Assembly: GCA_029573975.1 (NCBI GenBank)
Contig: JAKQBU010000238.1
Coordinates: forward strand, 1-24,557
Reading direction: 5' to 3'
DNA length: 24,557 bases
From: Planctomycetota bacterium
GTDB taxonomy: Bacteria; Planctomycetota; Phycisphaerae; Sedimentisphaerales; SM23-30
The position numbers and the translations under genes were made by a program. Each line of letters begins with the position of its first letter. Position 1 is the first letter of the stretch. The notes under the pieces are model-generated. The model saw only the letters and a list, made by a program, of their open reading frames with translations. It had not been told where the DNA came from and did not search any database. This document shows positions 2 to 24,557 of the stretch, piece after piece.

Positions 2-3000
2 CATCCGTATAATCCGGCCTCGCAGGATCGCTGGGGTTTTGGGGCGACCTTGTTTGATTCGGAATTGAACGAGGTGGCGGCGCTGGGGGAGGCGGATCTG
101 GGTACGCCGGATATCGGCGGCAGCGGGGTGGGGGCGGCCGGGACGGATCTGCCGCTGGTATTTACCGCGGAGACGGCGGGGATTTATACGGTAGAGATTA
201 ACTTTTTCGACATCCCTTCCTGGTCGTACCGGCTGGATATATCCGGCACGACGGCGGTGGTGCTGGGCGGCGGGAATGTGGGCGGGGATCTGCGGTCGCA
301 GGGCATGGAAGATGACGGCAAGTCCAATATCTGGATACCGACAGGGAATATGGGGGCGATGAGTGTGGGCGGGGCGGTGCGGGGCGGCAGCGTCCGGGTA
401 GATCAAGGCAGCCTGGGGGCGCTGCGGGCGGCGGCCAATGTCATGCCGGTCGGCGATTCGTTCAGTGCGGCCCCGGCGGTCAATTCCACTTTTGGTTTTT
501 ATCTGGAACTGGTGATAGGCGCTGATGTATTGCATGGCCCCTATCCCACCCTGATGGTAGGCGGGGATGTGGGGCTGGTCAGCTCGTATCAGGAGAGCAT
601 TCTGGATGTGAATATCGGGGGTAACCTGCAGGCCCTGCACATGGGGGCGGAAGGCGCCAGCGGGGTGGACTATATCGGGCATGTCGTCGTGGACGGCAAT
701 ATCGGGGAGATCGTGATCCAGGGAGATTACGGCGACATCATCGTGGATGAATTTGGCACTCCCTGGAGTTCTGACGGCGGGATTTTTGCCAATGCGGACG
801 GGCTGGGGCCGCGGGGAGTAATTGATGTCCTCCGCATCAGCGGCGATTTCGGGCAGGCCAACGGTTATTTCAGTGAATTGCCGTTGAGTGTGGGCGCCCG
901 GGGCGGGAATGTCCGGTTTGTGGATATTGGGGGAAATATTATCATAGCAACGGCTCATTGGGTTACCGGTGCGTTTGGGCCGTTCACGTTCAATCCCGGC
1001 CAGGCGGTGGAGATTGTGGATGATTCGGGGGCGCTGGTGCAGATTGCCCCGGGGTATCGGGGCGGCAACACCGATGTCTTTAACGCCAGTATGGCAGGGA
1101 TGATTCAGCCGACGCCGACGGAGGGGGATGGCGGGGTGCTGACGCTGAAGATTCTGCCGGTGCGGGACCAGACCTATCTGGAATATGTGAATAGCGGTTA
1201 TAATGTGGATCAGACGGCCCTGGGATTTGCCATTGTGGAGATTCAATCGACTGACGGCCTGCGGGTGAGCAGTAAGGGCGGACCGGTGGAGATCGGGCAG
1301 GTAACGGTGGCGGGGGTGGTGGACGACAGGATTATTTTTGACGGTTCCTCGGTGATTTCCGCCCTGGAGGTCCATGCCGATGGTCCCGCGACGGAAGGAG
1401 ACGGAGGGGGCGATGGGCAAGATGAACAAGAGGAAGATGATGAAGAAGAGGTGGTAGCTACGGGGGTCCGGCGGGTGATCAACAATACCAGGGGCGGGGA
1501 TATTGTCTCGCTGGTAATCGGTTCGGATGCGGCGGAGCGGAATGTGGCGGTGACCGCGGACTCGATTGTGATTACCGTGCATGAAGGGATTAATGAGCCG
1601 TTTGTGGACCTGATCCGGATTGACGGGAATCTGGGATATACCGCCGGCAGCACGGGGCAGCTCATCCAGTCCAAGATTATCAGTGCCTTGATTGAAGTGG
1701 GCAACAGTTTGACGGTGGCGGGGGATCCGGGCGGGCTGCAGCGGTCGGGGCTGCTGGCCGGCAGCAGTGTGACCAGCATCCAGGTGACCGGGGCGCTGGG
1801 GGATGTGGACGTACGGGGCGATGTGAACCGCATTGTCATCAACAGCGACGACAGCAATAATACGGGGCAGTTTGACGGCGTGGCCGGTGCGATTATCATC
1901 CACGGGAACCTGGGGCGGATTGAATTAGGAGATGGAATTACCGACCCGGGCACGGGGCGGTTTGCCCGGTCGGGCCTGTTTGTGTATGGTTCCATTGATC
2001 AGGTAAATATTTCCGGGTACGGCAATGATATCGCCGGACCGATTCTGGCGGCGGACTCGATTGACCAGGTGAATGTCAGCGACGGGGCCCGGATTCTGGG
2101 ATACAATGCGATGTCCGCGAATCGGGAACGGGCCCGCAACAATTTTGGCACGCAGCCCACGATTGCGGTAACAACCGATTTTGAAGCATTTTGGATATTC
2201 AACACCGGCTGGAGCCATACCGGGGATATTAATTCGATCACGGTTAAAGGGGAGGATTCCTATATTTTCGGGGCGCAAATTACCGCGGCGGCGATTCACC
2301 AGATTACGGTAAACGGGGGCGCGGAGGGGATCTTCAGTTCGGTGATCGGCGGGCACGGATATTCTGCCGTTGGGTTGGGGACCATCGATAGCATCGTAGT
2401 GGGCGGGGAAGGGATCCGGGATACGATTATTTCAGCGAACCGGCAGATCGGCCAGATTACGGTGGCGGCAGGCGGCACGATCGAATATTCGGAAATCCGG
2501 ATGGATACCAATTTCGCCGGCGCGGGCAAACGGATCGGTTCGATTACCGCCGATGCCTTTTATTATACGGATATTGACGCGGGCAATAAGCTGGACAAGG
2601 TGACGGCCCGGGACGAGGTCTTTGACCTGGTGATCGAGGCGGGCGAGCTGGGGACGCTGCAGGTGAAGAATGAAATGTTGGGTTCGGCGATTCTGGTGGC
2701 CGGGCCGGTGAAGCTGATTCAGGTCGGGGACGACCTAATCAGCACGATTTCGATTACCGGGCCGTTTGGGAATCTCAAGAGCCTGAAGGTGGGCGGAGAC
2801 CTGGGCACGCCGGCCGGCGGGGAGGTGTTGGTGGACGGCCAGGTGGGCAAGATTGCGGTCGGCGGCGATTTCCTGGCCGATTTTTACCTGAATTATTATC
2901 CCCAGCCGGTGACGCCGGGCAATCCGGATGGCGGTTTCGTGGCCTATCCGGGGCGGGAAGGAATCGAACTGAAATCGATGGTGGTGGGCGGTCAGATTCG

Positions 3001-6000
3001 CGGGATCGGGCATATCGGCGGGGATGTCAAGCTGATTTCCAGCGGGGGCGAGTTCGGGGTGCCGGGTTCCCTGCTGCATGTGTACGGCGATCTGAAGACC
3101 TTCGCGGTGGGATCGAAGAAGGGCATGGCCGACCTGGAAAGCTCCCTGATTGTGGACGGCGACCTGGGCAAGATGACGGTGTATGGGAACGTGAACGGCC
3201 AGATTAATGTGGTGCAGGACTTTACGTCACTAACGTTGATAGGCGGCCAGACGGCCGATACGCGGGCGGATTTGAACGCCAGCATTACGGTGGGCGGGGA
3301 TTTTGACAAACTGAAGATTATCAACGGCGATATTTCCGAAACGGATGTGGTGGACGGCGGCCTGCTGACCATCGATGTCAACGGCGAAGGGCCGAAGATA
3401 ACGATTAAAGGCTCGGATATTGACGGATTGTTGCGTGACGGTGGGGCGGGGCAGCAGCCGACGGGGATCGATATAGATGGTTCGCTGAACGGGACGTATA
3501 TCGCGACCGGAGATGTGGAACGGATTGTGCTGGGAGAGAATTTGAGTGAAACGGGGATCGTTATCATTGATGGCAACCTGGGGGAACTGGTGGTGGAGGG
3601 GAGCATCGAAGGGAAGGTGTATGTTTCCGGGAATATTGGTTCGATTGTAGCCGGCCATATGGGATTGGCTGTGGATACCATTGCCACGATTACCGCCGGC
3701 GGCAGCATCGGTACGATTGCAATCAGCGGGCAGATGCAGGACGGCTATATCCTGGCGGGTTTCGACCCCGGGATGGACTGGGACCTGGTGAATGACCCGA
3801 ATTTTGTGCCGGGCGATTTGACGACGGAATTGACGGTGGACGGGACGACGGCGGACCCGGCGGAGCAGGCCCTGGCCGGCGATATCGAGAAAATCCAGGT
3901 CGGCCTCTTGAACCATTCGGTGATTTCGGCGGGCGTGCATCCGGGCCGCAATACGGCCTTCGGGGACCTGGACGGCAGCGATACGGCGGGCAGCGGGCTG
4001 AGCCGGATCGGCTCGGTGGTATTGGGCCAGGTGCAGGGCGACGGCAGCTCGTTCGGGATTTTCGCGGACACGGAGATCGATTCGCTGAAGATCGGCAAGA
4101 AGAAGATTTCGGTGCCGGCGTACCTGGCGCAGTCCGGTTTTGGGGCCTGGACGGTTTTGGCGGAGGAGCCGGATGGGATCGACGGGATTCCGGTGCAGCA
4201 GGGGATGCCGCTGACGCTGCTGTTCGGCGATAAACTGGTGACGGTTACAATGAGCGGCCCCGGCCTGGGCCTGGTGGTTCCGGGGGCGGGGCAGATTGAG
4301 GCGATTCAACTGAGCGGAACGACGGACAAAACGAAGGTGAAGATCGAGGCCAAAGGATCGGACGCCATCGATGTGGGGCGGCTGTTCACCAGCGACGACG
4401 GGAGCCTAAAACAGTTGATTCTGGATGGGCAGATCGGCAACGCGGATTCGAATGCGTCGCTGGATATCGGGGGCGGTATTTCAAATCTGAGCCTGGGCGG
4501 GATCGGCGCGGGCACTGCGGTGAACATCGGCGGCAGCGTCGGCCAGGCGGAGGTCGGGATTCTGAGCGGCAGTGCGGCCGCCGCCACGGAAATCACGGTG
4601 CAGGGGAACATCGGCAGGCTGCGCACGGGGGATTTCGGTGCGTATGTGTCGATGGAGGCGGACAATATCGGCCAGTGGGCGGTGCGGGGCGATATGGACG
4701 GGTCGCTTACGATTCGCAAGGACCTGCTGGGCAAGATGCAGGTGAGCGGGGATATGGCCGGGACCATTTCGTCGGAAGGGTCGATTTCGCGTCTGGTGGT
4801 GGGCGGGGTGTTTGGCGGCGGGGTGCGGGCGAAACGGGATATCGACCGGTTTGTCACCGGCAGCATGTTTGACGGCGTCGTGGCGGCGAAAGGCGATTTC
4901 GACCTGGCCCAGATTACCGGCAACATGGAATACAGTACGCTGGCGGCCGGTCTGGATACCGGTGCGGATGCCCGGCTGGATGTGGCCGATGGGGTGGGGC
5001 GGGGCGATTTGAAGAAAGTCGTCATCGGCGGGGATTTTGTGCAGTCGAATCTGGCGGCGGGCATCGCATCCGGGGCGGACGGGTATTTTGCCACAGGCGA
5101 TGATTTTCTGGCCTCGGTCAATGTGGAGCAACTGGATGCGCCGAAGGTGAACGGGATTGCCATCAGTTCGGATTTGAAGAGCATTGACGTGAGTTTTCTG
5201 GTTCCCAGCCAGGGCCAGTCCTCCAGCATCGGCAGCGTGCAGATCAAGGGGTATGTGGAAGGTTCCTCGTATCCCAGCGAGCAGTTTGCCATCGTGTCGG
5301 CGGGCGAGGTAGGCACAGTATTTGTGCATGGTAAGGCCTTCGGCGGCAGCGAGGCGGAAAATATTGTCGTGGAGAATGTAACGACCAAAGGGATGCGGGC
5401 CAGCACGCTGACTATGGCGGATATCCGTTCCAGCAATGCGGCGGCGGCTCCGTTTCGGGTGGTGGCGGCGGGAATAGACAGCCAGTTCGGGACCGCCGAT
5501 GATATTTTGATTCATGGCGATGACGATGATGCGACGGACCCCACCGTGTGGCTGGAGTTTGATGAAACCACGCAGACGGTCAAATTTGGCAAGAACGACG
5601 GCTTCCTGCTCAACAACGGGGGCACTAATTATTATCAGGTCGTACTGGATGCCTCCCAGATTACCAATATCATGGGGGTGCCGCTGGATGGGGAGTTCAG
5701 CGGCCAGTGGCCGACAGGCGATGGATTGCCGGGGAACGGCAATTTTGTATATTATTTTTCGGTAGGGGACTGGGGCGATTCAATCGCAACGGCGTTTACC
5801 CCGTTCCCGCTGCAGGCCTACGCCGAGGGCTTCCCGACGAATCAGCAATGGCAGTACCGCAGCCAGACAGGCGATGGGGCGGGTTTGTTGCAGGGGATTT
5901 TTGACGATCTGGATACGATCCAGTTGACCCAACTGCAAAAGGGGCAGATTCTCAATATCGGCATTGACGATGCCCAGACGCTCGGGACCTATTCGCAGAA

Positions 6001-9000
6001 TACGTTTCAACTGGCGCTGTATCGGATCGAAGAAGCGAATCTGGACTTGTCGGGGCAGGAGATGATTGATTATAACGGCCGGAACGATCTGGCACCGGCT
6101 CGGGATGTGGTGATTCCGGAGATGGATGAGCTGGCGTATGCGGGCGGGCACTTTTATGCCTATGAAAATATCGGGCAGCAGTTTTATTCGCTGACGCCGC
6201 TCTATCTGGAGATGGAACTGCTGGAGAACGACCTGGAGGACCTGAATAACCTGCTGGCAACGCCGGGGACGCTGACGGATATCAATGCCCTGGGATCGCA
6301 TGGGGGCAATTCAATCTGGGCGATTGCGGATTTCCAGCCGGCCAGCGGCGCGGCGCGGAAGAGCCTGGTTTTGATAACCGACCTGGATCATCCGGAAACG
6401 ACGACGATTACCCTGTCCGCCCAGAATCTCGGCAGCCGGGACATTGTCGGTCTGGCGGAACTGGACGGCGTGCTGTACGGCCTGGATGCGGCGAATAACG
6501 CCCTGGTTGCCTTGAATTCGGATCTGACCAGTGCCAGTTTCGGGCAGGTGACGAATACCTATTCTCTGACGAATACCGAACTGGTATGGGCCGGGCTGTC
6601 GGTCAGCCGCGATGGGGATACGCTGCTGGCGCTGCATGATCAGCCGCTGGATGTGCTGACCAACTTTTACCAGGATGCCTTGTACGAACTCCATCCGGAT
6701 TCGGTGCTGGGCGGCAGCCAGATCAACCCCGTTCTCTATTACGAATTTCCGTACGATATGGAGCGGCACGGGCTGGCGGTCCAGCCGGGCGGGGTGATTC
6801 TGGCGGGTCTGCCGCTGCGGGGCAGCCCCGTGGGAGATACGATCCGCATCGATTTTGCCAGCGAGTCGGTTTTGGTGACCGAAACCCAGTACCATGTTTT
6901 CGGCGACGACACCACGGTATTTTCCGGTTTGAATAACCGGATCGTCTCCGACAAACTCCAGGTTCTGGAAAACAACCGGTTGCAGAATTTTATCGCGGAA
7001 GGGATGTATTACGCCTTTGAAATCAGCTACGATCAGCAGATGGGTCCTGTTACGATCACGATTACGGATATGGACTGGCTGAATGATACGGATTTCGGCC
7101 AGATCACTTCGGCGGTTACGGATTCGCCCGAGAATGTGAATATCACCGGCCTGGGGGCCGGAGCGATCCAGTTGCAAATCGACACCGATTTAGGGGATGG
7201 CTCGTTCAAGCTCTATTTTGCCGGGACCAGTTGGGTGGAACTCATCGATTCGGAAGGGGAGATTCTGATGGGCGGTTTGACGGGCGAGCGCTTGCGGGAA
7301 GATTTGTCGCCGGTACGAGACCTGATCCTGCCGAATATGACGGAGTTGGCGACGGCTTCCGCGAATCTGTACACTTTTACCACGATTGCATTTACCGACG
7401 AGCTGCGGGATGCCCTGCCGGAAGATCTGGTCGAAGAAGTAGAAGAGAATGGTTTGACTTTCGCTTTGTGGTCCCAACTGTTGAATCAGTTGCCGCCGGA
7501 TATGTGGGATGATCTGGCGGCGGCGGTCCGTTCGGTCAGCTATGATGCCCTGGGCTATGACGCCGATCAGGAGTATTTTGCCCTGGTGAGCACCGACAGC
7601 CAGCAGGTTCGGCCGATCCTGGTGCAGGATCCCCTGGATCCGCAAGGGGAGGAAGTGCCGCTGACGCTGGAGGTGTTGAGCGACATTTTCGACCAGACAT
7701 TCGACACACGCGATGTCACGATCGATGCGGTGCGGGGCTTCGAGTTTGGTGTCTATGATACCGCTCTGGGTATCGATGAACTCTGGATGGTGGCCACGGT
7801 GACGATCGAGGAGGTCGGAACGTACGATTTCCTGCTGAATGTTAATAGCATTCTGAACCCCTATGAGGGGATGACCCTGGGCCGGCACCGGTTAACGGCC
7901 CTGGTCAATCAGACGGAAGTATTCATGGATATCACGGATCTGGCGTATCGGGACGACAAGATTTATGCCATTGATTCGGCATCGGATACCCTGGTCACCA
8001 TCGACAGCCGGATGCAGGTAATCGATCTGCTGACCAACGAACCCATCAACAATCCTGTTTTTGGAAAGATTTCCCTGATCGACGGCCAGTTGGGGAACCT
8101 GGGCGATCCGGGACCGGGCCAGATTGAGATCGTGGGTCTGGATTTTGCTTCGGATGGCGTTTTGTATGCCCTGGATAATTATTCCGACAGTATCGCGCGG
8201 CTCAATACCGAAACGGTTTCCGAACCGAATGCGGCACGGATGGAAGTAATTGATGTGCTGGCGAGTGGGGATTACAGTGCGTTTCATATTCATCCCGACG
8301 GGATGTTTTACATGGTACGAACGGCAAACGGCAGTCCGGTCGGCCAAACCATGCAGATTACCGTTAATTCCACCAGCAGTGCTTCCCATATCTTCGGCAC
8401 TTCGGCTACCACCACGGTCGGCGGGGTAAGCGTGACCAGCAGTGCGGCAGCCAATGAGGCGGCGGCGGTCGTGGAAGCAGGCGGATTTTATCGGCTGGAT
8501 ATTGCCTATGGAACCGCGCAGGGGGATCTGGTCATCGATTTGAATAACATCCTGTGGGTAGGGGCGGGCCGCGGCGATGTGGATTCGGTATTTGTTTCGG
8601 ATCCGGCGAATGTAACGGTGGCGGATTTTGACGGCGATTTCATCCGGATCCAGATTGACAGCAATAACGGCAGCGGTACGGTGAGCGTTTACTTTGGGGC
8701 TACCTCCGATTTGCTGATGGCCAGTTCTGGCGAGGTGGTTCAGCAGGTAAGCGCGGTATATACCGATGGGCAAGGGGATGACCTGGTCGCCATGATCCCG
8801 GACGACGGGAATTATATTGTGGAAATCAGCAGCTTGTTTAACACCACCTATGATCTGGATATCACGCTGTATGATGACGGCAACGGCGATTTCGGTATCT
8901 ATACCACGACCAGCGGGATTGCCTATGATCCGATCGGGCCTTCCAACCGCCCGATCAGCCTGGCGGCCGGCAGTCCGGATCTGGTGGTCGATGAGGATGA

Positions 9001-10213
9001 CGATACGGTGTTCTACTATAATCCTGCCCGCAGCGGGGCCGCCGCGGAAGACGGCTTCCGGGTGGATGGGGAACTGCTGGTACCGGGTGAGGCGAACTCT
9101 CTCGCCGTGCACTCCAAACTGGGGCCTTATATGGACGTGGATGTCTATAGTTTCCAGTTGGAAGAAGGCCAGCGGATTACGGTGGATATCGATTCGGAAA
9201 TCAACTACGGCCGGGATACCATGCGGATATCCGTCGGGATTTATAATGGGGATCTGGAATCCGTCACCACGGCCATGACCGATGAATATTACGATGTCGT
9301 TCCGGCCCAGGCTGCCGATCCGATTTATACCGGCCAGGCGGTCTTTACCGTACCCAACCATGGTTCGGTTACGATTGACCCCAGTGTGAACGGCGTGGGA
9401 ACGTATTATGTGGTGGTGAGTGGTTTGGGGATTCAGGGCAATGCTCCGAAAGAGGAGTCATCCTACACGCTGAAAATAACGACGACCGAGACGGAAACGG
9501 TACAGGCGGCGCCGTCGCAACTGGTATGGCTGGCGTTTGATGGCGCGATTGCCGATTTTCTGGCCCATGCGGGAATGGGATACTCCCAGGCGGATACCTA
9601 CCGGCCCGCCTTTGATATTGCCGATTTCGGCCTGGGCAACACCAGCCGCAGTTGGCTGATTCAGCAGATTGCCGACCGGATCGAGGTGATGTACCGCCAG
9701 ACGGGTCTGAGTGAGAATGAAATAGAATTTACCCTGACCAAACCCGGCGCCGGCCAGGTATATTCCACGGTGGTTTTTGGCGGGACGTTAGATTCCGGTC
9801 TGAATGGATTGGCCGAGTCCGTAGATCGCAATAACAGCGACCGGACGGAAATGGCGTTGGTTTTGACGGAAGAAATGGCGCGCAATTACTGGCTGGATCT
9901 GAGCGATGATCTGACGGTCCGCCGGGAGCAGGTCATCAACATGCTGGCCAATACCGGCGCGCATGAGTTAGGGCACACCTTGGGACTCGAACATGCCCGG
10001 GAAGTCTCGGTGACGGAACCGAATAATCTGATGAATTATTTCTGGGGTGACGAAACCTATTTGAAATTGTCCGAGCAGGAATTTGAGGAACGGACCAGCT
10101 TCCTGGAATTTGCGGATCGTCATTATGACCTTTTCTATGGCCAGATCGGCTTCCAGAATGAAATCGATATCCTGCTGCGGAATATCGGCTCCGGAACCCC
10201 GATGGGCAAATAA
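2..10213 (+). CDS. Giant extracellular beta-strand-repeat protein with C-terminal metzincin-type protease domain (5' end outside window)
   Basis: The frame is open from the left edge, so the true start lies upstream; the TTG at 50 is not a start. About 3,400 residues are visible. Order: a short pre-peptidase-like beta segment (about nt 150-245); a long run of glycine-rich repeats of the type GNIGxIxVxG / GGDLGxLxV (about 290-5420), typical of parallel beta-helix or beta-roll folds; an acidic D/E linker (about 1390-1455); a pre-peptidase-like domain (about 5900-6090); two copies of a roughly 400-490-residue module (6086-8760); another pre-peptidase-like domain (about 9130-9480); and a metalloprotease domain. 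The latter has HELGHTLGLEH at 9962-9994 (three His zinc ligands and catalytic Glu) and a candidate Met-turn, LMNYFW, with Met at 10031. That pattern is the metzincin signature. I see no cysteine in the visible protein, which suits a secreted or surface protein. Substrate is unknown. Protease activity is inferred from the motif only. Confidence 0.9.
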   Translation, partial: HPYNPASQDRWGFGATLFDSELNEVAALGEADLGTPDIGGSGVGAAGTDLPLVFTAETAGIYTVEINFFDIPSWSYRLDISGTTAVVLGGGNVGGDLRSQGMEDDGKSNIWIPTGNMGAMSVGGAVRGGSVRVDQGSLGALRAAANVMPVGDSFSAAPAVNSTFGFYLELVIGADVLHGPYPTLMVGGDVGLVSSYQESILDVNIGGNLQALHMGAEGASGVDYIGHVVVDGNIGEIVIQGDYGDIIVDEFGTPWSSDGGIFANADGLGPRGVIDVLRISGDFGQANGYFSELPLSVGARGGNVRFVDIGGNIIIATAHWVTGAFGPFTFNPGQAVEIVDDSGALVQIAPGYRGGNTDVFNASMAGMIQPTPTEGDGGVLTLKILPVRDQTYLEYVNSGYNVDQTALGFAIVEIQSTDGLRVSSKGGPVEIGQVTVAGVVDDRIIFDGSSVISALEVHADGPATEGDGGGDGQDEQEEDDEEEVVATGVRRVINNTRGGDIVSLVIGSDAAERNVAVTADSIVITVHEGINEPFVDLIRIDGNLGYTAGSTGQLIQSKIISALIEVGNSLTVAGDPGGLQRSGLLAGSSVTSIQVTGALGDVDVRGDVNRIVINSDDSNNTGQFDGVAGAIIIHGNLGRIELGDGITDPGTGRFARSGLFVYGSIDQVNISGYGNDIAGPILAADSIDQVNVSDGARILGYNAMSANRERARNNFGTQPTIAVTTDFEAFWIFNTGWSHTGDINSITVKGEDSYIFGAQITAAAIHQITVNGGAEGIFSSVIGGHGYSAVGLGTIDSIVVGGEGIRDTIISANRQIGQITVAAGGTIEYSEIRMDTNFAGAGKRIGSITADAFYYTDIDAGNKLDKVTARDEVFDLVIEAGELGTLQVKNEMLGSAILVAGPVKLIQVGDDLISTISITGPFGNLKSLKVGGDLGTPAGGEVLVDGQVGKIAVGGDFLADFYLNYYPQPVTPGNPDGGFVAYPGREGIELKSMVVGGQIRGIGHIGGDVKLISSGGEFGVPGSLLHVYGDLKTFAVGSKKGMADLESSLIVDGDLGKMTVYGNVNGQINVVQDFTSLTLIGGQTADTRADLNASITVGGDFDKLKIINGDISETDVVDGGLLTIDVNGEGPKITIKGSDIDGLLRDGGAGQQPTGIDIDGSLNGTYIATGDVERIVLGENLSETGIVIIDGNLGELVVEGSIEGKVYVSGNIGSIVAGHMGLAVDTIATITAGGSIGTIAISGQMQDGYILAGFDPGMDWDLVNDPNFVPGDLTTELTVDGTTADPAEQALAGDIEKIQVGLLNHSVISAGVHPGRNTAFGDLDGSDTAGSGLSRIGSVVLGQVQGDGSSFGIFADTEIDSLKIGKKKISVPAYLAQSGFGAWTVLAEEPDGIDGIPVQQGMPLTLLFGDKLVTVTMSGPGLGLVVPGAGQIEAIQLSGTTDKTKVKIEAKGSDAIDVGRLFTSDDGSLKQLILDGQIGNADSNASLDIGGGISNLSLGGIGAGTAVNIGGSVGQAEVGILSGSAAAATEITVQGNIGRLRTGDFGAYVSMEADNIGQWAVRGDMDGSLTIRKDLLGKMQVSGDMAGTISSEGSISRLVVGGVFGGGVRAKRDIDRFVTGSMFDGVVAAKGDFDLAQITGNMEYSTLAAGLDTGADARLDVADGVGRGDLKKVVIGGDFVQSNLAAGIASGADGYFATGDDFLASVNVEQLDAPKVNGIAISSDLKSIDVSFLVPSQGQSSSIGSVQIKGYVEGSSYPSEQFAIVSAGEVGTVFVHGKAFGGSEAENIVVENVTTKGMRASTLTMADIRSSNAAAAPFRVVAAGIDSQFGTADDILIHGDDDDATDPTVWLEFDETTQTVKFGKNDGFLLNNGGTNYYQVVLDASQITNIMGVPLDGEFSGQWPTGDGLPGNGNFVYYFSVGDWGDSIATAFTPFPLQAYAEGFPTNQQWQYRSQTGDGAGLLQGIFDDLDTIQLTQLQKGQILNIGIDDAQTLGTYSQNTFQLALYRIEEANLDLSGQEMIDYNGRNDLAPARDVVIPEMDELAYAGGHFYAYENIGQQFYSLTPLYLEMELLENDLEDLNNLLATPGTLTDINALGSHGGNSIWAIADFQPASGAARKSLVLITDLDHPETTTITLSAQNLGSRDIVGLAELDGVLYGLDAANNALVALNSDLTSASFGQVTNTYSLTNTELVWAGLSVSRDGDTLLALHDQPLDVLTNFYQDALYELHPDSVLGGSQINPVLYYEFPYDMERHGLAVQPGGVILAGLPLRGSPVGDTIRIDFASESVLVTETQYHVFGDDTTVFSGLNNRIVSDKLQVLENNRLQNFIAEGMYYAFEISYDQQMGPVTITITDMDWLNDTDFGQITSAVTDSPENVNITGLGAGAIQLQIDTDLGDGSFKLYFAGTSWVELIDSEGEILMGGLTGERLREDLSPVRDLILPNMTELATASANLYTFTTIAFTDELRDALPEDLVEEVEENGLTFALWSQLLNQLPPDMWDDLAAAVRSVSYDALGYDADQEYFALVSTDSQQVRPILVQDPLDPQGEEVPLTLEVLSDIFDQTFDTRDVTIDAVRGFEFGVYDTALGIDELWMVATVTIEEVGTYDFLLNVNSILNPYEGMTLGRHRLTALVNQTEVFMDITDLAYRDDKIYAIDSASDTLVTIDSRMQVIDLLTNEPINNPVFGKISLIDGQLGNLGDPGPGQIEIVGLDFASDGVLYALDNYSDSIARLNTETVSEPNAARMEVIDVLASGDYSAFHIHPDGMFYMVRTANGSPVGQTMQITVNSTSSASHIFGTSATTTVGGVSVTSSAAANEAAAVVEAGGFYRLDIAYGTAQGDLVIDLNNILWVGAGRGDVDSVFVSDPANVTVADFDGDFIRIQIDSNNGSGTVSVYFGATSDLLMASSGEVVQQVSAVYTDGQGDDLVAMIPDDGNYIVEISSLFNTTYDLDITLYDDGNGDFGIYTTTSGIAYDPIGPSNRPISLAAGSPDLVVDEDDDTVFYYNPARSGAAAEDGFRVDGELLVPGEANSLAVHSKLGPYMDVDVYSFQLEEGQRITVDIDSEINYGRDTMRISVGIYNGDLESVTTAMTDEYYDVVPAQAADPIYTGQAVFTVPNHGSVTIDPSVNGVGTYYVVVSGLGIQGNAPKEESSYTLKITTTETETVQAAPSQLVWLAFDGAIADFLAHAGMGYSQADTYRPAFDIADFGLGNTSRSWLIQQIADRIEVMYRQTGLSENEIEFTLTKPGAGQVYSTVVFGGTLDSGLNGLAESVDRNNSDRTEMALVLTEEMARNYWLDLSDDLTVRREQVINMLANTGAHELGHTLGLEHAREVSVTEPNNLMNYFWGDETYLKLSEQEFEERTSFLEFADRHYDLFYGQIGFQNEIDILLRNIGSGTPMGK
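290..5420 (+). repeat. Degenerate glycine-rich beta-helix-like repeat region inside the giant gene
   Basis: The translation shows dozens of imperfect repeats of roughly 18-25 residues, with alternating hydrophobic residues and G-N/D-I/L-G turns (for example GNIGEIVIQGDYG, GNLGRIEL, GDLGKMTVYGNVNG). These suggest stacked beta-strand coils. The repeats are divergent at the DNA level. The boundaries are approximate and the fold is inferred from the pattern, not computed. Confidence 0.6.
6086..8760 (+). repeat. Tandem duplication of a large protein module inside the giant gene
   Basis: Two related modules lie head to tail. Copy 1 opens with DLAPARDVVIPEMDEL at 6086 and copy 2 with DLSPVRDLILPNMTEL at 7301. 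Later in each copy comes a block starting GSPVGDT (6821) or GSPVGQT (8330). It is followed by a similar beta-rich stretch that includes D-rich segments and KLYFAGTSW versus SVYFGATSD. Between these anchors are propeller-like segments (VLYGLDAANNALVALNSDL; KIYAIDSASDTLVTIDS; VLYALDNYSDSIARLN). Copy 2 is longer, because the anchors are 1,215 nt apart at the start and 1,509 nt apart at the second block. Confidence 0.6.
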
Positions 10214-19343: not shown

Positions 19344-19386
19344 ACCTATTTTTGCCTCGTGACAATACTATTCACTTTTACTCATG

Positions 19387-19704
19387 TTTTGCACTGCTTT
19401 TATAGCACTTTAACACGTTTTTCCATCACTTTCTTCATGTTTTGCTATACTTTGTTTAACATTTACCAACTCAACCTAACCGTCAAATCTTACCAAAATT
19501 CTTATCCATATTACCAAAAATCTTACCCAACCGTTATAACCGTTATAATCGCTACTTTATTATCGGACCATCACTTTCCACGTAAAATAAAGACTTACAG
19601 CAATTTCCTCAAATCAAAAATAAGCACTTACAGCAATTCCGCAAAACAAAAATTAAAGACTTATGGCAATTACCAGTCCCCAAAATTACGGACTTACAAG
19701 CGAC
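19387..19704 (+). repeat. A+T-rich intergenic element, copy A (with 33-nt periodic array)
   Basis: This element fills most of the 419-nt gap between the phosphodiesterase start and the rhomboid stop. It matches copy B in inverted orientation, ungapped: 19552-19599 is identical to the reverse complement of 24208-24255 (48 bp), and about 165 of 186 positions match over 19422-19607. It ends in four units with GACTTA (once CACTTA) at 19592, 19625, 19658 and 19691, exactly 33 nt apart, with CAATT and A-runs between. Its plus strand is G-poor: by hand count about 17 G and 61 C in 19381-19620. Shorter internal duplications are seen (TTACCAAAA... about 21 nt apart; AACCGTTATAACCGTTATAA). Confidence 0.8.
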
Positions 19705-19723
19705 CAACGGGAGCGTCGCCTTG
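19697..19723 (-). terminator. Candidate hairpin downstream of the rhomboid gene
   Basis: CAAGCGAC (19697-19704) pairs with GTCGCCTTG (19715-19723) with one bulged base and a 10-nt loop. On the minus strand it lies about 40 nt after the rhomboid stop and is followed by a moderately T-rich stretch of element A. It is not a classic intrinsic terminator, since the T-run is broken. Confidence 0.3.
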
Positions 19724-19748
19724 GTAAAATGCCCGCGGCGCGAGTGGT

Positions 19749-19762
19749 GCAGGCTTGCCTGC
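19749..19762. repeat. 14-nt palindrome directly abutting the rhomboid stop codon
   Basis: GCAGGCTTGCCTGC is a perfect inverted repeat immediately after the stop codon (minus-strand sense). It could form a small hairpin in the mRNA. A GCAGGC also occurs just after the rseP stop codon, at 24127-24132, but without its partner arm. Confidence 0.4.
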
Positions 19763-20587
19763 TTACATACGATTTCGTTTTTGTTCTTCCGTCGCCTGCT
19801 GGAGGATCTTTTTCTCTTTTCCGCTCAGGCTCTGAATCCCCTGTTCATGCACCTTGGCCAGGATCCGGTCCAGCTCATATTGCAGCATCTCCCTCTTCTT
19901 ACTCTTTTTCTGATAAGAGGTTGCACTCAATCGCGATAGCCATGCCTTTATATACGGCCTGCCTACCCACACAAATCCCGTCGCCATCCCCCCCAAGTGA
20001 CACAAATCCCCGCCCGCGTTGGCCATATTTGTCAAGACGGATAACATATACACCACGCATAGCAAAATCGCCGCAAGTCGAATTGGCACAGGGAATAATA
20101 TCAAAATGACCGTTACTTGCGGAAAGAGCACCGCACACGCCGCCAGCATTCCCAGAATCCCCCCCGATGCCCCAATGATATATTCACCGCTTAGCCAGCC
20201 AATCGAAGTAAAAACGACAAACAAAAGTCCACCCACCAAACCACATGTTAAATAAAAGGTTATGAATCGTTTCGCCCCCCAGCTTCGTTCCAGCAGCGGC
20301 CCCAGAAAATACAGCCCGATCATATTGAACAGCAAATGAAAGGGCGTTCCCGTGTCATGCAGAAACTGAAACGTAATCAGCCGCCATACCTGAAAAGGAT
20401 GATAAACCGTTGCAGCAAAAAGGGTTTCCAACTTCCCCCTGAAAGCCAGTTGCAGCAGAAAAATCACGCAATTCGCGATAAGCAGGTACTTTACCATCGG
20501 GCTGGGCCGGGGCAGTCCGAAGCCGCCCATTCTACCGCCGCCCATGCCATATGGTTCCTGATAATATTGCCGGTCCTGAAAACTCAC
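19763..20587 (-). CDS. Rhomboid family intramembrane serine protease
   Basis: 274 residues. I chose the GTG at 20587 over the TTG at 20593 because the AAAGGAA ribosome site lies 7 nt before the GTG but only 1 nt before the TTG. Six to seven hydrophobic segments span about residues 32-210. Rhomboid signatures are present: HLLFN (His84, Asn88), the GASGG catalytic motif (Ser141) and the catalytic His197 in CHLGG. It should cleave transmembrane helices of substrate proteins within the inner membrane. The glycine/methionine-rich N-terminus is followed by the core. A charged C-terminal tail (residues ~225-274, with ELDRILAKVHEQGIQSLS) resembles the tail domain seen on many planctomycete rhomboids. 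It is transcribed divergently from dxr. Confidence 0.93.
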   Translation of the reverse strand: MSFQDRQYYQEPYGMGGGRMGGFGLPRPSPMVKYLLIANCVIFLLQLAFRGKLETLFAATVYHPFQVWRLITFQFLHDTGTPFHLLFNMIGLYFLGPLLERSWGAKRFITFYLTCGLVGGLLFVVFTSIGWLSGEYIIGASGGILGMLAACAVLFPQVTVILILFPVPIRLAAILLCVVYMLSVLTNMANAGGDLCHLGGMATGFVWVGRPYIKAWLSRLSATSYQKKSKKREMLQYELDRILAKVHEQGIQSLSGKEKKILQQATEEQKRNRM

Positions 20588-20622
20588 GTGCAAGTTCCTT
20601 TCTTTTCGATTGTTACAAACCT

Positions 20623-20650
20623 ATCATATCGCCCCCATCGAATAAATCAA
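20623..20650 (-). promoter_or_regulatory. Candidate promoter of the rhomboid gene
   Basis: On the minus strand TTGATT (20650-20645) and TATGAT (20628-20623) are separated by 16 nt. The start codon is about 35 nt downstream. The -10 matches consensus at five of six positions. Confidence 0.45.
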
Positions 20651-20710
20651 GCAAATGCCGGAGAGCGTTTCCTGTTTTACGGCAGTCATTTACATTCGGT
20701 TCGATTTTTC

Positions 20711-20738
20711 TTGTAATCACCTCCGTTCTGACTAGACT
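20711..20738 (+). promoter_or_regulatory. Candidate dxr promoter implying a leaderless mRNA
   Basis: TTGTAA (20711-20716) and TAGACT (20733-20738) are 16 nt apart. The -10-like hexamer ends 7 nt before the ATG at 20746, so transcription could start at or beside the start codon. No Shine-Dalgarno sequence precedes the ATG. Each hexamer matches consensus at only four of six positions. Confidence 0.3.
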
Positions 20739-20745
20739 TATCTCT

Positions 20746-21924
20746 ATGCGGCAAAAGAAAAAACGGATAGTGCTGCTGGGTTCGACCGGCTCCATCGGCC
20801 TGAACAGCCTGGCAGTTATAGATTCCCTGCAAGATTCGTATGAATTAATCGCGGTCAGTGCCCATTGCAAATGGCAGGTGCTGGCGGAGCAGGCCCGTAA
20901 GTACCGTTTAAATAAGGTGGTAATAACCGATCCCCTGTATCTGGAGCCGCTGCAAAAGGGCTTGGCGGATACTCCAACCGAGGTGCTGGGGGGGCCGGAA
21001 TATCTGGTGGAACTGGCGACGGACGAACGCTGCGATATTTTGATTGTCAGTATTGTGGGAGCTGCCGGTCTGCCAGCCGTAGTAGCAGCCGTCAAGGCGG
21101 GAAAAACCGTGGCCATCGCCAACAAGGAATCGCTGGTGGTGGCCGGCTGTCTGTTAATGCCGATGGCGCAAGAGTATAACGCCACCATCCTGCCGATTGA
21201 CAGCGAACATTCCGCCATCCTACAGGCGATGCATTCCGGCCGGCGGGAAGAGGTGGAAAAAGTCATAATTACCTGTTCCGGCGGACCGTTCCGTCAATGG
21301 ACCGCCGAACAGCTTTCCGGTGCGACGGTGGCCCAGGCCCTGCGGCATCCGACCTGGAATATGGGTCCGAAAATCACCATTGACTCTGCCACATTGATGA
21401 ATAAAGCCCTGGAAATCATTGAAGCCCGCTGGCTTTTCGGACTGGAACCGGAACAAATTGAAGTACTCATCCATCCGGAGTCGATAATTCATTCATTGGT
21501 AGAGTTTTGCGATGGTTCGGTGATAGCCCAGCTATCCAATCCCGACATGAAACTGCCGATTCAGTATGCCCTGACCTACCCGCACCGGCTGCCTTGCACT
21601 ACCCGGCGGCTTAAACTCAGTGAAATGGGTAAGTTAACGTTTGAACCGCCGGACAGGGACCGTTTTCCCGCCTTGCGGCTGGGGTTCGAGGTGGCGCGCC
21701 AGGGCGGTACGGCTGGGGCCGTGCTCAATGCCGCCAATGAAGCGGCGGTTGCGGCGTTCCAGGCCGGTAAAATTGGTTTTCATCAGATAGCCGAACTTAC
21801 CGAGCATTGTCTGCGTAGTCATAAGTGGATAAAAAATCCGAGTTTGGATCAACTGCTGGCCGCGGATCGCTGGGCCAGAGAAATGGTTGCCAGCCCCGAA
21901 AAAACGGGGATTAAAGTTTCGTAA
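20746..21924 (+). CDS. dxr: 1-deoxy-D-xylulose 5-phosphate reductoisomerase
   Basis: 392 residues, the normal length. It converts DXP to 2-C-methyl-D-erythritol 4-phosphate with NADPH, the committing step of the MEP isoprenoid pathway, in the cytoplasm. Visible: NADPH-binding GSTGSIG (residues 12-18); ANKESLV (125-131); metal ligands Asp152 and Glu154 in IDSEHSAILQ; SGGPF (178-182); HPTWNMG (His201); and DSATLMNKALE with Asn219, Lys220 and Glu223; then HPESIIHS. The ATG at 20746 gives the usual short basic N-terminus; the upstream extension to 20551 is not family-like and overlaps the rhomboid gene. No Shine-Dalgarno is present. rseP follows 41 nt downstream, a gene order common in bacteria. 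Confidence 0.97.
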   Translation: MRQKKKRIVLLGSTGSIGLNSLAVIDSLQDSYELIAVSAHCKWQVLAEQARKYRLNKVVITDPLYLEPLQKGLADTPTEVLGGPEYLVELATDERCDILIVSIVGAAGLPAVVAAVKAGKTVAIANKESLVVAGCLLMPMAQEYNATILPIDSEHSAILQAMHSGRREEVEKVIITCSGGPFRQWTAEQLSGATVAQALRHPTWNMGPKITIDSATLMNKALEIIEARWLFGLEPEQIEVLIHPESIIHSLVEFCDGSVIAQLSNPDMKLPIQYALTYPHRLPCTTRRLKLSEMGKLTFEPPDRDRFPALRLGFEVARQGGTAGAVLNAANEAAVAAFQAGKIGFHQIAELTEHCLRSHKWIKNPSLDQLLAADRWAREMVASPEKTGIKVS

Positions 21925-21940
21925 TTGCTTGTTTTATAAT
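21911..21940 (+). promoter_or_regulatory. Candidate promoter for rseP
   Basis: A perfect TATAAT at 21935-21940 lies in the dxr-rseP gap, with a poor -35 (TTAAAG at 21911-21916, 18 nt upstream, inside the end of dxr). The predicted leader is about 20 nt and contains GAGGT 4 nt before the ATG. rseP may have its own promoter as well as read-through from dxr. Confidence 0.35.
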
Positions 21941-21965
21941 TTAGTAAAAAGATTTTGAGGTATCT

Positions 21966-24125
21966 ATGTCGGATCAGACAAACGTTCCCGTGGAAAAGAA
22001 AGAATCAAATAGATTTTCCCAGGTATTGATGCTGGCGATTTTAGCGGGTGGCGGCATATATTTGATGGGGCATCTGGACAAAGTTTGGAATATAATTCTG
22101 GTATTAGCCGGCTTCGGGGCGGTGGTTTTTGTGCATGAGTTGGGCCATTTTATTGCGGCCAAATCCGTGGGAATCAAGGTGGAAGGCTTTGCCCTGGGTT
22201 TCGGCCCAACCATCGTAAGTTTTCAAACGGTGCAAGGGGGATTTCAGATTCGCATACTCCCCGATTTGTTTCACGGGGAAGATGGAAAAAGTCAATGTAA
22301 CCTAACCATACCAACGAAATCCACGCAGGAAGCGGAAACGGAATATAAGATAAATCTTGTGCCGCTCGGCGGTTATGTCAAGATGCTGGGGCAGGAGGAT
22401 GCCGGTCCCGACAAACCCAGCGACGATCCGCGGGCCTTCGGCAATAAGAAGATATGGCAGCGAGCGATTGTGGTATCCGCAGGTGTCATTATGAATATCA
22501 TTTGCGGAATCCTGGTGTTTATGATTGTTTTTTCGCATGGTGTGGATTTGGAGCCGGCGGTGATCGGTGACGTGGTAAAAGATACGCCGGCCGCCGAGGC
22601 CGGATTGAAACCGGGGGACGAAGTGATAGAGATTAACGGTTCGACAAAGCTGGTGTTTACGGATATCAAGCTGGCCAGCGCCCTTGCGGATAAAGGGCAG
22701 GGGGTGGAGATGAAGGTGAAACATACGGATGGGACAATTGAGGATTATACCATTGTTCCTAAGATGGATGAACTGATTGGGATCCAGGAATTTGGTATTC
22801 TACCGCCTCAATCCCTGACAATTGGTAATGTGCGGGAAGCCGAAATCATCGAACAATTACTGCAAATAGGCCTTCTGGCAGGGGATACGATTACCGCGGT
22901 GAACGGCCGGGAGATATCGCGTGCTGATCAGCTTCATGACTATTTATATCCGGAATCGCTGCTACAGACGCCGGCGAATTTGAAGATTACCGTATCGAGG
23001 AAATCGGATGCCGGGCAAACCCAACACGATATTGAAATTCCCTTCCTGCTGATGGGGCTGGGCGACCGGCAGACCCGGGGGCAGATTTTGGGGATGAAAC
23101 CGCGTTTGAAGGTCGAAAAGGTAACGGAAAAAAGTGCTCAGGCAGCCGGTTTACAGGCAGGAGATATTATCCTGGAAATCGGGTCAATTCTAAATCCAAC
23201 ACTGGAAGATATTTATAAAGTTTGTGAAAGTAATATAGGAAATTCTGTAGGTATGGTGGTTAGCCGCCAAACAGAGGGTGAATGGATTGAGAAGACATTG
23301 GAGGTAACTCCCTACCGCCGCAGTCCGGTTTCCTGGATCGATCGGCTCTTCCGGGGTGCGAAAGGGGATCCGATGATCGGATTTATGGCCGGATTTGATA
23401 TGGAACATCCTGTTATTGCAGAAGTTAGCAAGGAGTTCCCAGCCGCAGAAGACCAACTGGCCATGCCGCGTGGTGCTCGGATAGTTAGTATAGAGGATGT
23501 TCCGGTGGCAAGCTGGCAGGAGATTATTCGGGAACTTATCCGCCATTCCGGCGAAACAGCAGCTATTGGATATCAGGTAGGGGATCAGCCGGCTGTGAAT
23601 ATTGTAAACGTGAAGGTGCCGCAGGAGGAGCCTGAGAAGTGGATTCAATATGCGTATCTTCCTGACTTTAAAGGTTTGGCAGCACTGCCTTTAAAGACAC
23701 TGCTGCGGCAATTCAAGGGGGATAGCTGGGCGGAGAGTATGGAGTTGGGGCTGAACCGGACCTATGATTTTGTCGCCCAGACGTACCTGATGATCAAAGG
23801 GATGTTCCAGGGGACGATGTCGGTCAAGGCGGCTAGCGGGCCGGTAGGGATTTTAAGTGCCAGTTATACGATCGTGCAGGAGAGGCCGACGAGTTATTAT
23901 TTTTATTTTCTGGCGATCATCAGTGTCTGCGTAGCGGTGTTTAACTTCTTACCATTGCCGGTTTTAGATGGCGGGCTGATGGTGTTCCTGCTGATCGAGA
24001 AAATCAAAGGCTCACCGATATCCGTGCGAACGCAGGCAATCGCCACGTATGCGGGACTGGCATTGATTTTGGGACTGGTGCTGTGGGTTACGGTTTACGA
24101 TATTGGGAAGATTATTGGTATTTAA
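21966..24125 (+). CDS. rseP: RIP metalloprotease RseP (site-2 protease) with four PDZ-like domains
   Basis: 719 residues against about 450 in E. coli. It is an inner-membrane zinc protease that cleaves transmembrane segments, classically of anti-sigma factors. The active site is HELGH at residues 57-61 (His57, Glu58, His61), and the third ligand lies in LPVLDGG (Asp668). Membrane segments lie near residues 18-35, 42-65, 165-190, 645-665 and 692-712. Between the second and third sets are four PDZ-like regions: about 197-268 (AAEAGLKPGDEVIEINGS), 280-350 (LLAGDTITAVNGREIS), 380-450 (AQAAGLQAGDIILEIGS) and a weaker one at 470-552. SGPVGILS (624-631) is another family motif. The extra PDZ regions account for the length. 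GAGGT precedes the ATG by 4 nt. It follows dxr in the same direction. Confidence 0.95.
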   Translation: MSDQTNVPVEKKESNRFSQVLMLAILAGGGIYLMGHLDKVWNIILVLAGFGAVVFVHELGHFIAAKSVGIKVEGFALGFGPTIVSFQTVQGGFQIRILPDLFHGEDGKSQCNLTIPTKSTQEAETEYKINLVPLGGYVKMLGQEDAGPDKPSDDPRAFGNKKIWQRAIVVSAGVIMNIICGILVFMIVFSHGVDLEPAVIGDVVKDTPAAEAGLKPGDEVIEINGSTKLVFTDIKLASALADKGQGVEMKVKHTDGTIEDYTIVPKMDELIGIQEFGILPPQSLTIGNVREAEIIEQLLQIGLLAGDTITAVNGREISRADQLHDYLYPESLLQTPANLKITVSRKSDAGQTQHDIEIPFLLMGLGDRQTRGQILGMKPRLKVEKVTEKSAQAAGLQAGDIILEIGSILNPTLEDIYKVCESNIGNSVGMVVSRQTEGEWIEKTLEVTPYRRSPVSWIDRLFRGAKGDPMIGFMAGFDMEHPVIAEVSKEFPAAEDQLAMPRGARIVSIEDVPVASWQEIIRELIRHSGETAAIGYQVGDQPAVNIVNVKVPQEEPEKWIQYAYLPDFKGLAALPLKTLLRQFKGDSWAESMELGLNRTYDFVAQTYLMIKGMFQGTMSVKAASGPVGILSASYTIVQERPTSYYFYFLAIISVCVAVFNFLPLPVLDGGLMVFLLIEKIKGSPISVRTQAIATYAGLALILGLVLWVTVYDIGKIIGI

Positions 24126-24136
24126 TGCAGGCGGTT

Positions 24137-24420
24137 TCGATTGTAAGTCGTTATTTTTGAGTTTTAAAAATTGCTATAAGTCTTTATTTTTGGGGACGGG
24201 AAAATGATGTAAGTCTTTATTTTACGTGGAAAGTGATGGTCCGATAATAAAGTAGGGATTCTAACGGTTTTAACGATTGGGTAAGATTTTTGGCAAGATG
24301 GGCAAGAATTTTGGTAATTTGTAACGGTTAGGTTAAGTTGGTAAATGTTGAACAAAGTATAGTAAAAGACGAAGAAAGTGATATAAAACATGGGTAAAAC
24401 ACGAAGAAAGTAGTATAAAA
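24137..24420 (-). repeat. A+T-rich intergenic element, copy B (with 33-nt periodic array)
   Basis: This is the inverted partner of copy A, beginning about 12 nt after the rseP stop codon. On the minus strand GACTTA starts at 24215, 24182 and 24149, exactly 33 nt apart (three units, one fewer than A). Both arrays finish with GACTTACAA followed by G/T and CGA. At the far end a 32-nt tandem repeat is visible on the plus strand (CGAAGAAAGT at 24370 and 24402, each followed by TATAAAACA). The remaining 432-nt stretch to the right edge holds no clear gene. Confidence 0.8.
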
Positions 24421-24503
24421 CACAATAGTGTTCGGCACATGATTTGCTCTTTTCCAATCTCAGCAAGAATTTCGGCATCCAGGGAGATTTCGGGAAAGGA
24501 CAT
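24333..24503 (-). pseudogene. Small open frame entering element B, possibly truncated gene
   Basis: 56 codons. The first ~22 (MSFPEISLDAEILAEIGKEQ and two more) have a protein-like composition. The rest is a translation of the element and is hydrophobic. No ribosome site precedes the ATG. It may be a gene cut by the element or simply chance. I do not recognise a family. Confidence 0.15.
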
Positions 24504-24517
24504 AACGGGAGTTCTGA

Positions 24518-24557
24518 TTATTTCGGCGCAGCATTTACGGCCGCCTCGGGGAAGGCG
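24518..24557 (-). CDS. Possible C-terminal tail of a minus-strand gene continuing beyond the window
   Basis: The frame is open from the right edge and reads AFPEAAVNAAPK then stop at 24518-24520. Codons look like those of neighbouring genes. Twelve residues are too few for identification, so this could be chance. The opposite strand is also open here. Confidence 0.2.
   Translation of the reverse strand, partial: AFPEAAVNAAPK

What the first reader, a model, noticed from the sequence alone, without database searches (positions are those of the whole stretch)
19387..24420. Inverted pair of a related A+T-rich intergenic element flanking rhomboid-dxr-rseP
Copies A and B match as inverted repeats with a constant coordinate sum of 43807, meaning no gaps across at least 19427-19663. 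They share a 48-bp perfect match (19552-19599 with 24208-24255) and about 89% identity over 186 nt. Two copies within 5 kb suggest a dispersed repeat family. I know of no named family with this sequence. The pair could also support inversion of the ~4.6-kb segment between the copies.
Basis: partly seen in the sequence, partly recalled or inferred. Interest (0 to 1): 0.75.

Follow-up and report, generated by a model that had tools for sequence, protein, structure and literature searches.

The report
Planctomycete intergenic repeat with phased motif
The two inverted copies are members of a scattered, non-coding repeat family that lies between genes of an uncultured planctomycete; its leading 20-base motif, repeated every 33 bases, also borders unrelated repeats in related bacteria, which suggests that an unknown protein binds it.

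Summary
In detail: 279-nt inverted arms at 19385-19663 and 24144-24422, 81% alike, with a 48-bp perfect block. It is not a local duplication: the nearest genome held (G001, which matches MAG UR.bin216) has 30 clusters of the same element, 14 of them nearly full length.

Anatomy: a head of 3-4 units at 33-bp steps (RTAAGTSNTTATTTT), a conserved C-poor core, and a tail of A-tracts phased at about 10.75 bp. A and B are each closest to their own counterpart in G001, so the spread predates that split.

The head motif is shared more widely than the element. In the order it exceeds its control 247 sites to 33. Several genomes have it bordering their own, different repeat body. Outside G001, six of seven close same-strand pairs are 33 or 34 bp apart. 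I read the head as a protein-binding array at the edge of dispersed intergenic elements; how they spread is unknown. Not met: REP palindrome, RAYT linkage, long terminal inverted repeats. Inversion of the segment has no support. At phylum scale the motif is not above control.

A known kind (dispersed intergenic repeat) in an unusual form; interest moderate.

The parts
19385..19698 (-). Copy A (head at 19698, tail at 19385), between rhomboid and GDPD
19583..19698 (-). Copy A head: four TAAGT units at exact 33-bp steps (the outermost two deviate from the consensus by a base or two)
   Evidence: tandem array of period 33 also found by TRF
19464..19582 (-). Copy A core, C-poor on the head-to-tail strand, contains most of the 48-bp perfect block
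19385..19463 (-). Copy A tail with phased A-tracts
24142..24422 (+). Copy B (head at 24142, tail at 24422), 18 nt after the rseP stop codon; its tail is cut short compared with most G001 copies
24142..24224 (+). Copy B head: three TAAGT units at exact 33-bp steps (TAAGT at 24144, 24177, 24210)
24225..24343 (+). Copy B core
24344..24422 (+). Copy B tail with phased A-tracts
19704..19762 (.). GC-rich module that abuts the head of copy A; itself a dispersed repeat
   Evidence: 4 further matches in G001, 83-90%; abuts the head in several copies

Best explanation
A and B are two members of a dispersed, non-coding, intergenic repeat family of this planctomycete lineage (shown). Each copy is polar: a head of motif units at 33-bp steps, a conserved C-poor core and a tail of phased A-tracts (shown). 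The head motif is the part that matters: an array of binding sites for a conserved DNA-binding protein, three helical turns apart so that its subunits sit on one face of the DNA beside curved DNA (inferred). The bodies behind the motif are lineage-specific and replaceable (shown for several genomes). The array most likely works in DNA architecture, as a boundary between a gene and a long spacer; the mechanism of spread is unknown (inferred).
For: 30 clusters in G001 plus A and B. Units at exact 33-bp steps in A and B; in G001 and window 36 of 45 close same-strand pairs at 33 bp, 4 at 32, 1 at 34; outside them 5 at 33 and 1 at 34 of 7, in three genomes with different spacer sequence. Within the 33-bp unit TAAGT and TTATTTT were required by the search pattern; of the rest, some columns vary widely. 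Orthologs of A differ by one whole 33-bp unit. Tail AAA runs peak at 10.75 bp, power 12.6 against at most 3.0 in 100 shuffles. In the order the motif has 247 sites against 33 for the reversed control, chiefly in families f1, f2 and f6. Similar 3' flanks within genomes but 0 similar between genomes. No RNA structure signal.
Against: No binding protein is known. The 16 copies used for periodicity are related, so the shuffle test overstates the evidence. Outside G001 most motif sites are single: 7 close same-strand pairs among 121 distinct hits. At phylum scale, with one mismatch, the motif is not above its reversed control: 19 of 391 genomes have it, and apart from G001 (16 sites) and an unrelated element in G642 (179 sites) the sites are about as few as the control's (my count 21 to 28). 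Family f4 has fewer sites than control (2 to 7). The paired sites in two viral contigs are 37 and 45 bp apart, not 33. In GWC2_45_44 and GWF2_41_51 the repeat body lies mainly on the other side of the motif.
Confidence: 0.4

Rival explanations
1. A non-autonomous mobile element without a host role. The head motif is the recognition site of a recombinase or transposase encoded elsewhere, and each lineage has amplified a different body beside it. The 33-bp steps are then mere tandem duplications.
For: Genome-specific bodies beside one shared motif. The motif also occurs in viral contigs, near a terminase gene in four and an integrase gene in two of the ten looked at. Unit number varies by whole units between orthologs.
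Against: No terminal inverted repeat of any length; no target-site duplication could be tested because no empty site was found; the motif lies at none of 12 fetched stretches around Y1_Tnp genes (12 of 20 matches in four genomes); A and B are at the same sites in G001, so there is no sign of recent movement.
Confidence: 0.33
2. A portable promoter or upstream activating region. The units are activator sites, the conserved block holds the promoter, and the C-poor body is a long leader of the downstream gene.
For: In G001 and the window the downstream gene runs in the element's direction in 19 of 21 clusters with a called downstream gene; among codirectional gene pairs 9 to 1 (p 0.02). A weak sigma-70-like TTTACG-16-GATAAT lies in the perfect block of both copies.
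Against: Promoter-like sites are no more than in shuffles (9 found, mean 7.5, sd 2.7). The downstream genes look unrelated (read by eye). Some copies have a longer spacer in the block. In other genomes the motif shows no such bias: downstream gene with it 17, against it 19.
Confidence: 0.12
3. A Rho-dependent barrier to antisense transcription. The complementary strand is rich in C, poor in G and unstructured, so transcripts that enter from the tail side would be stopped.
For: Composition over core and tail of 16 copies: C 5.9%, G 25.3% on the head-to-tail strand; no stable fold of that strand. Gaps without an element have only mild skew (0.10 for codirectional).
Against: Does not explain the 33-bp array or the shared motif; no transcript data; only the head-to-tail strand was folded.
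Confidence: 0.06
4. A single local inverted duplication, or an invertible switch of the 4.5-kb segment between A and B.
For: Two inverted copies 4.5 kb apart with a 48-bp perfect block.
Against: 30 clusters in G001. A matches its G001 counterpart at 90.7%, B its own at 91.7%, A matches B at 84.5%. The G001 junctions are not inverted.
Confidence: 0.02

Closest known systems
REP elements and BIMEs (GTAG- and CGTC-tagged palindromes; PMC3733652, abstract and passages seen)
   Same: Dispersed, intergenic, mosaic, many copies per genome; reported from Planctomycetes too.
   Different: No stable palindrome or tagged hairpin; longer, polar, C-poor; no link to the transposase genes that go with REPs.
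MITEs and other small non-autonomous repeats such as ERIC, RUP, CIR (PMC2229807, abstract and list of sections seen)
   Same: Short, non-coding, repeated, intergenic.
   Different: No long terminal inverted repeats; a variable number of 33-bp units at one end only.
Phage stoperators and iterons (recalled, no call)
   Same: Short asymmetric sites repeated in non-coding DNA, read by a protein.
   Different: Here the sites head larger repeat bodies at many places in a chromosome, and no binding protein or replicon is known.

Membership tests
REP/BIME | 20-40 bp palindrome able to form a hairpin, with a GTAG or CGTC tag (PMC3733652) | tested here: not met
   Folding of the element is no better than shuffles, z -1.17 and 0.20; only weak short inverted repeats inside the copies. 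The tag was judged by eye on the unit.
REP/BIME | Association with RAYT (Y1_Tnp) genes | tested here: not met
   Y1_Tnp matches in 4 of 4 genomes, but the motif in 0 of 12 stretches fetched around 12 of the 20 matches.
MITE | Terminal inverted repeats | tested here: not met
   No long inverted arms at the ends of A or B; the best is 18 nt at 78% in A only.
MITE | Target-site duplication | not testable with these tools
   No empty site was found for comparison.
Dispersed intergenic repeat family (general) | Many similar non-coding copies between genes of one genome | tested here: met
   30 clusters in G001 plus A and B; no called gene over the element in 46 loci.
Structured RNA or described RNA family | Match to an Rfam family, or fold better than shuffles | tested here: not met
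   0 Rfam matches at gathering score over the window; folds as above.
Protein-binding array | A protein that binds the motif | not testable with these tools
   Needs an experiment.

The most novel reading that the evidence does not exclude
A conserved protein of these planctomycetes recognises RTAAGTCNTTATTTTRCGT and uses it to seed or maintain intergenic elements: the site is the fixed edge, the body beside it is replaced from lineage to lineage, and temperate phages of these bacteria carry the same site beside integrase or terminase genes, so that one protein serves chromosome and phage.
Probability: 0.2. Interest if true: 0.72.

Novelty: new variant of a known kind. Interest (0 to 1): 0.45.

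Why it matters
Dispersed repeats are normally recognised by their whole sequence. Here a 20-bp edge motif and its 33-bp step are kept while the body changes from genome to genome. If a protein is behind this, it would open genome organisation, or an undescribed way of spreading non-coding DNA, to direct test in a phylum with few genetic tools. Such repeats may also be places where short-read assemblies of these genomes break.

Tried and rejected
Single local duplication: rejected by copy number. Structured RNA: no support. RAYT as mobiliser: no link. Chromosome-polarity signal: no closed genome with many copies was found; the three sources with two clusters (window, L195, L200) have them in opposite orientation, which speaks against it. 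tRNA attachment site: tRNA genes found in 4 of 29 loci scanned; not followed. The 179 copies in G642 belong, as far as the four G642 loci read show, to a different element with its own palindromic ends; these loci were left out. BLAST of copy B against phage and plasmid records: no match. Exact 38-nt piece in viral contigs: none. Literature: six searches, listings only; nothing on this motif or on such repeats in this group. Synteny: beyond the head of A and the tail of B the window and G001 differ, but assembly across a repeat can cause this and part of the region is missing from G001, so no claim is made. Purifying selection: mixed (Fisher p 0.0001 for B against rseP fourfold sites, 1.0 for A against GDPD).

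Limits: G001 is a MAG of 660 contigs, 78% complete. The gene caller is my own script; trained on the window alone it miscalled the GDPD region, so it was retrained on the fetched G001 contigs. In one search, 11 of 32 clusters had no called downstream gene, and divergent gene pairs say nothing about orientation. In one search at most 7 candidates per genome were scored. Of 69 genome-contig loci I count 56 titled Planctomycetota or a group within it (18 genomes, 10 of them with one locus) and 13 not; one search used 52 or 53 flanks from nine genomes, single-locus genomes left out except G009/CSMAG_2046, for which loci were used. In one search, 4 of 51 motif places fell inside a called gene.

Full report
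Check of the observation. The inverted pair is real and as described. Arms 19385-19663 and 24144-24422 match without gaps over 279 nt (226 identical, 81.0%), with a 48-bp perfect block at 19552-19599/24208-24255 and 165 of 186 identical in the best 186 nt. The neighbours are a glycerophosphodiester phosphodiesterase, a rhomboid protease, dxr and an M50 protease with PDZ domains. Both copies lie in low-GC intergenic DNA.

Copy number. The window's own assembly is not held. The nearest genome, G001, shares 37% of sampled 31-letter words; its places and contig lengths agree with records titled Planctomycetota bacterium isolate UR.bin216. Copy B matches 40 places there at E up to 0.01. Fourteen are nearly full length at 82-94% identity: 13 cover at least 218 nt and one covers 177 nt up to a contig end.

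Anatomy. An alignment of 14 G001 copies with A and B shows one polar structure. The head is an array of units; A has four, B three, at exact 33-bp steps. The core is conserved, nearly gap-free, and C-poor on the head-to-tail strand (C 5.9%, G 25.3% over 206 columns of core and tail). The tail carries A-tracts with a period of about 10.75 bp. Conservation is high and fairly even from the last unit through the core, and lower in the outer units and the tail. Neither strand read head to tail folds better than shuffles, no Rfam family matches, and there is no long terminal inverted repeat. Further modules follow the tail in many copies, often in the same order (read by eye).

History. A is closest to its positional counterpart in G001 (90.7%), B to its own (91.7%); A to B is 84.5%; the mean over 16 copies is 85.6%. 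In the tree only A and its counterpart group with fair support (90/88); most forks are unresolved, B's place among them. The spread therefore seems to predate the split of the two genomes. The A orthologs differ by one whole 33-bp unit. Constraint is uncertain: the core of B changes less than fourfold sites of rseP (7 of 124 against 50 of 243), the core of A as much as those of GDPD (10 of 121 against 10 of 126). Conversion among copies could also cause the first.

Setting in G001 and window (32 clusters). Where the upstream gene is codirectional the head lies 0-210 nt behind it (median 63, 15 clusters); where it is divergent, 53-967 nt (median 158.5, 14 clusters). The tail lies at a median of 500 nt before a codirectional downstream gene (19 clusters) (medians). 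The downstream gene runs in the element's direction in 19 of 21 clusters with a called downstream gene. Only codirectional pairs inform on orientation, and there it is 9 to 1 (p 0.02). Gaps with an element are long: medians 817, 998 and 1199 nt (5, 5 and 2 gaps) against 362, 279 and 381 nt (25, 11 and 5 gaps) for codirectional, divergent and convergent pairs. In other genomes the motif shows no such bias: downstream gene with it in 17 places, against it in 19.

What is shared beyond the genus. Of 98 relatives, G001 included, 9 had a match to copy B; the others' matches are short, mostly to the head unit, some inside genes. A scan of one genome per species for YRTAAGTSNTTATTTTRCGT gave 69 loci; I count 56 titled Planctomycetota or a group within it and 13 not. 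In the order, RTAAGTSNTTATTTT occurs in 76 of 158 genomes and its reversed control in 26; sites 247 to 33. By family: f1 100 to 3 (51 of the 100 in G001), f2 66 to 5, f6 36 to 5, f7 39 to 13, f4 2 to 7. In the class, a longer form occurs in 3 of 298 genomes, control none. In the phylum, a form with one mismatch occurs in 19 of 391 genomes, and apart from G001 and G642 it is not above its control (about 21 sites to 28 by my count). So enrichment is shown for the order, above all f1, f2 and f6, not for the phylum.

The key result. Within UR.bin216, SMBSF06, Zod_Metabat.916 and Nc350_bin29 nearly all pairs of loci have similar 3' flanks (96 of 105, 10 of 10, 6 of 6, 3 of 3), in G009 5 of 15, in NC_groundwater_1802 1 of 3, in AUK119 1 of 1; between genomes none. 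5' flanks are also similar in UR.bin216 (67 of 105, at most 100 nt), Nc350_bin29 (3 of 3) and Zod_Metabat.916 (4 of 10), and 4 pairs between genomes. In GWC2_45_44 (10 of 10) and GWF2_41_51 (18 of 36) the similar side is mainly the 5' one (3': 2 of 10 and 5 of 36). So one motif borders different repeat bodies. Spacing is shared too: in G001 and window 36 of 45 same-strand pairs within 120 bp are at 33 bp; outside, five at 33, one at 34 and one at 89, the first six from three genomes (G009, SMBSF06, NC_groundwater_1802); 121 distinct hits were examined there, so most sites are single.

Phages. The motif occurs in 21 stretches of viral contigs. Of ten contigs looked at for genes, four have a terminase large subunit gene (L143, L147, L150, L156) and two an integrase gene (L140, L158) near it by PHROGs (nine proteins searched). 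A variant form occurs in four contigs. Chance is a fair explanation for hits in A+T-rich contigs and for those inside genes; hits in contigs of GC 0.60-0.68 (L145, L154, L156) are harder to explain so. That is a rough reckoning, not a test. Two viral contigs have paired sites 37 and 45 bp apart.

Interpretation. Shown: a dispersed, polar, intergenic repeat family, and a head motif with 33-bp steps that recurs in other genomes beside different bodies. Inferred: a protein binds the motif as a phased array. Unknown: how copies spread. The main rival is a passive mobile element whose edge is a recombinase site. A portable promoter or a Rho barrier would explain the orientation bias in G001 but not the shared motif. 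The inversion idea has no support.

Novelty. No description was found in six literature searches (listings only). PMC3733652 was seen as abstract and passages, PMC2229807 as abstract and list of sections. It is a dispersed intergenic repeat, a known kind, in an unusual form.

Noticed in passing
window 19704-19762; G001 matches L218-L221: A GC-rich module abuts the head of copy A and recurs at four places in G001 (83-90%); in several copies it joins the head at the same junction. It looks like a separate REP-like repeat.
   Followed up: partly
L168, L181, L184, L187 (genome G642): An abundant GC-rich element (179 matches to the search pattern in the genome) with palindromic ends that happens to contain TAAGTCGTTATTTTGCGA; MITE-like, unrelated to the window's element.
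   Followed up: partly
L143, L147, L150, L156, L140, L158, L252-L254: The head motif or a variant in non-coding DNA of phage contigs, in some near terminase or integrase genes.
   Followed up: partly
window 24423-24557: Beyond the shortened tail of copy B the sequence has no match in G001, where a different gene follows.
   Followed up: partly
L193: The gene downstream of one element starts like a Cas9 protein (judged by eye).
   Followed up: no
L190-L212, between element tail and downstream gene: Other repeated words recur in the long gaps, such as GTTATCAGTTATCGG, AGATTGCCCAGATTAACAGC and CATGGAATGCCGGTTTCCCCCCGTG, often in the same order.
   Followed up: no
window 50-10213: An open frame of 3387 residues ahead of type II secretion genes.
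   Followed up: no
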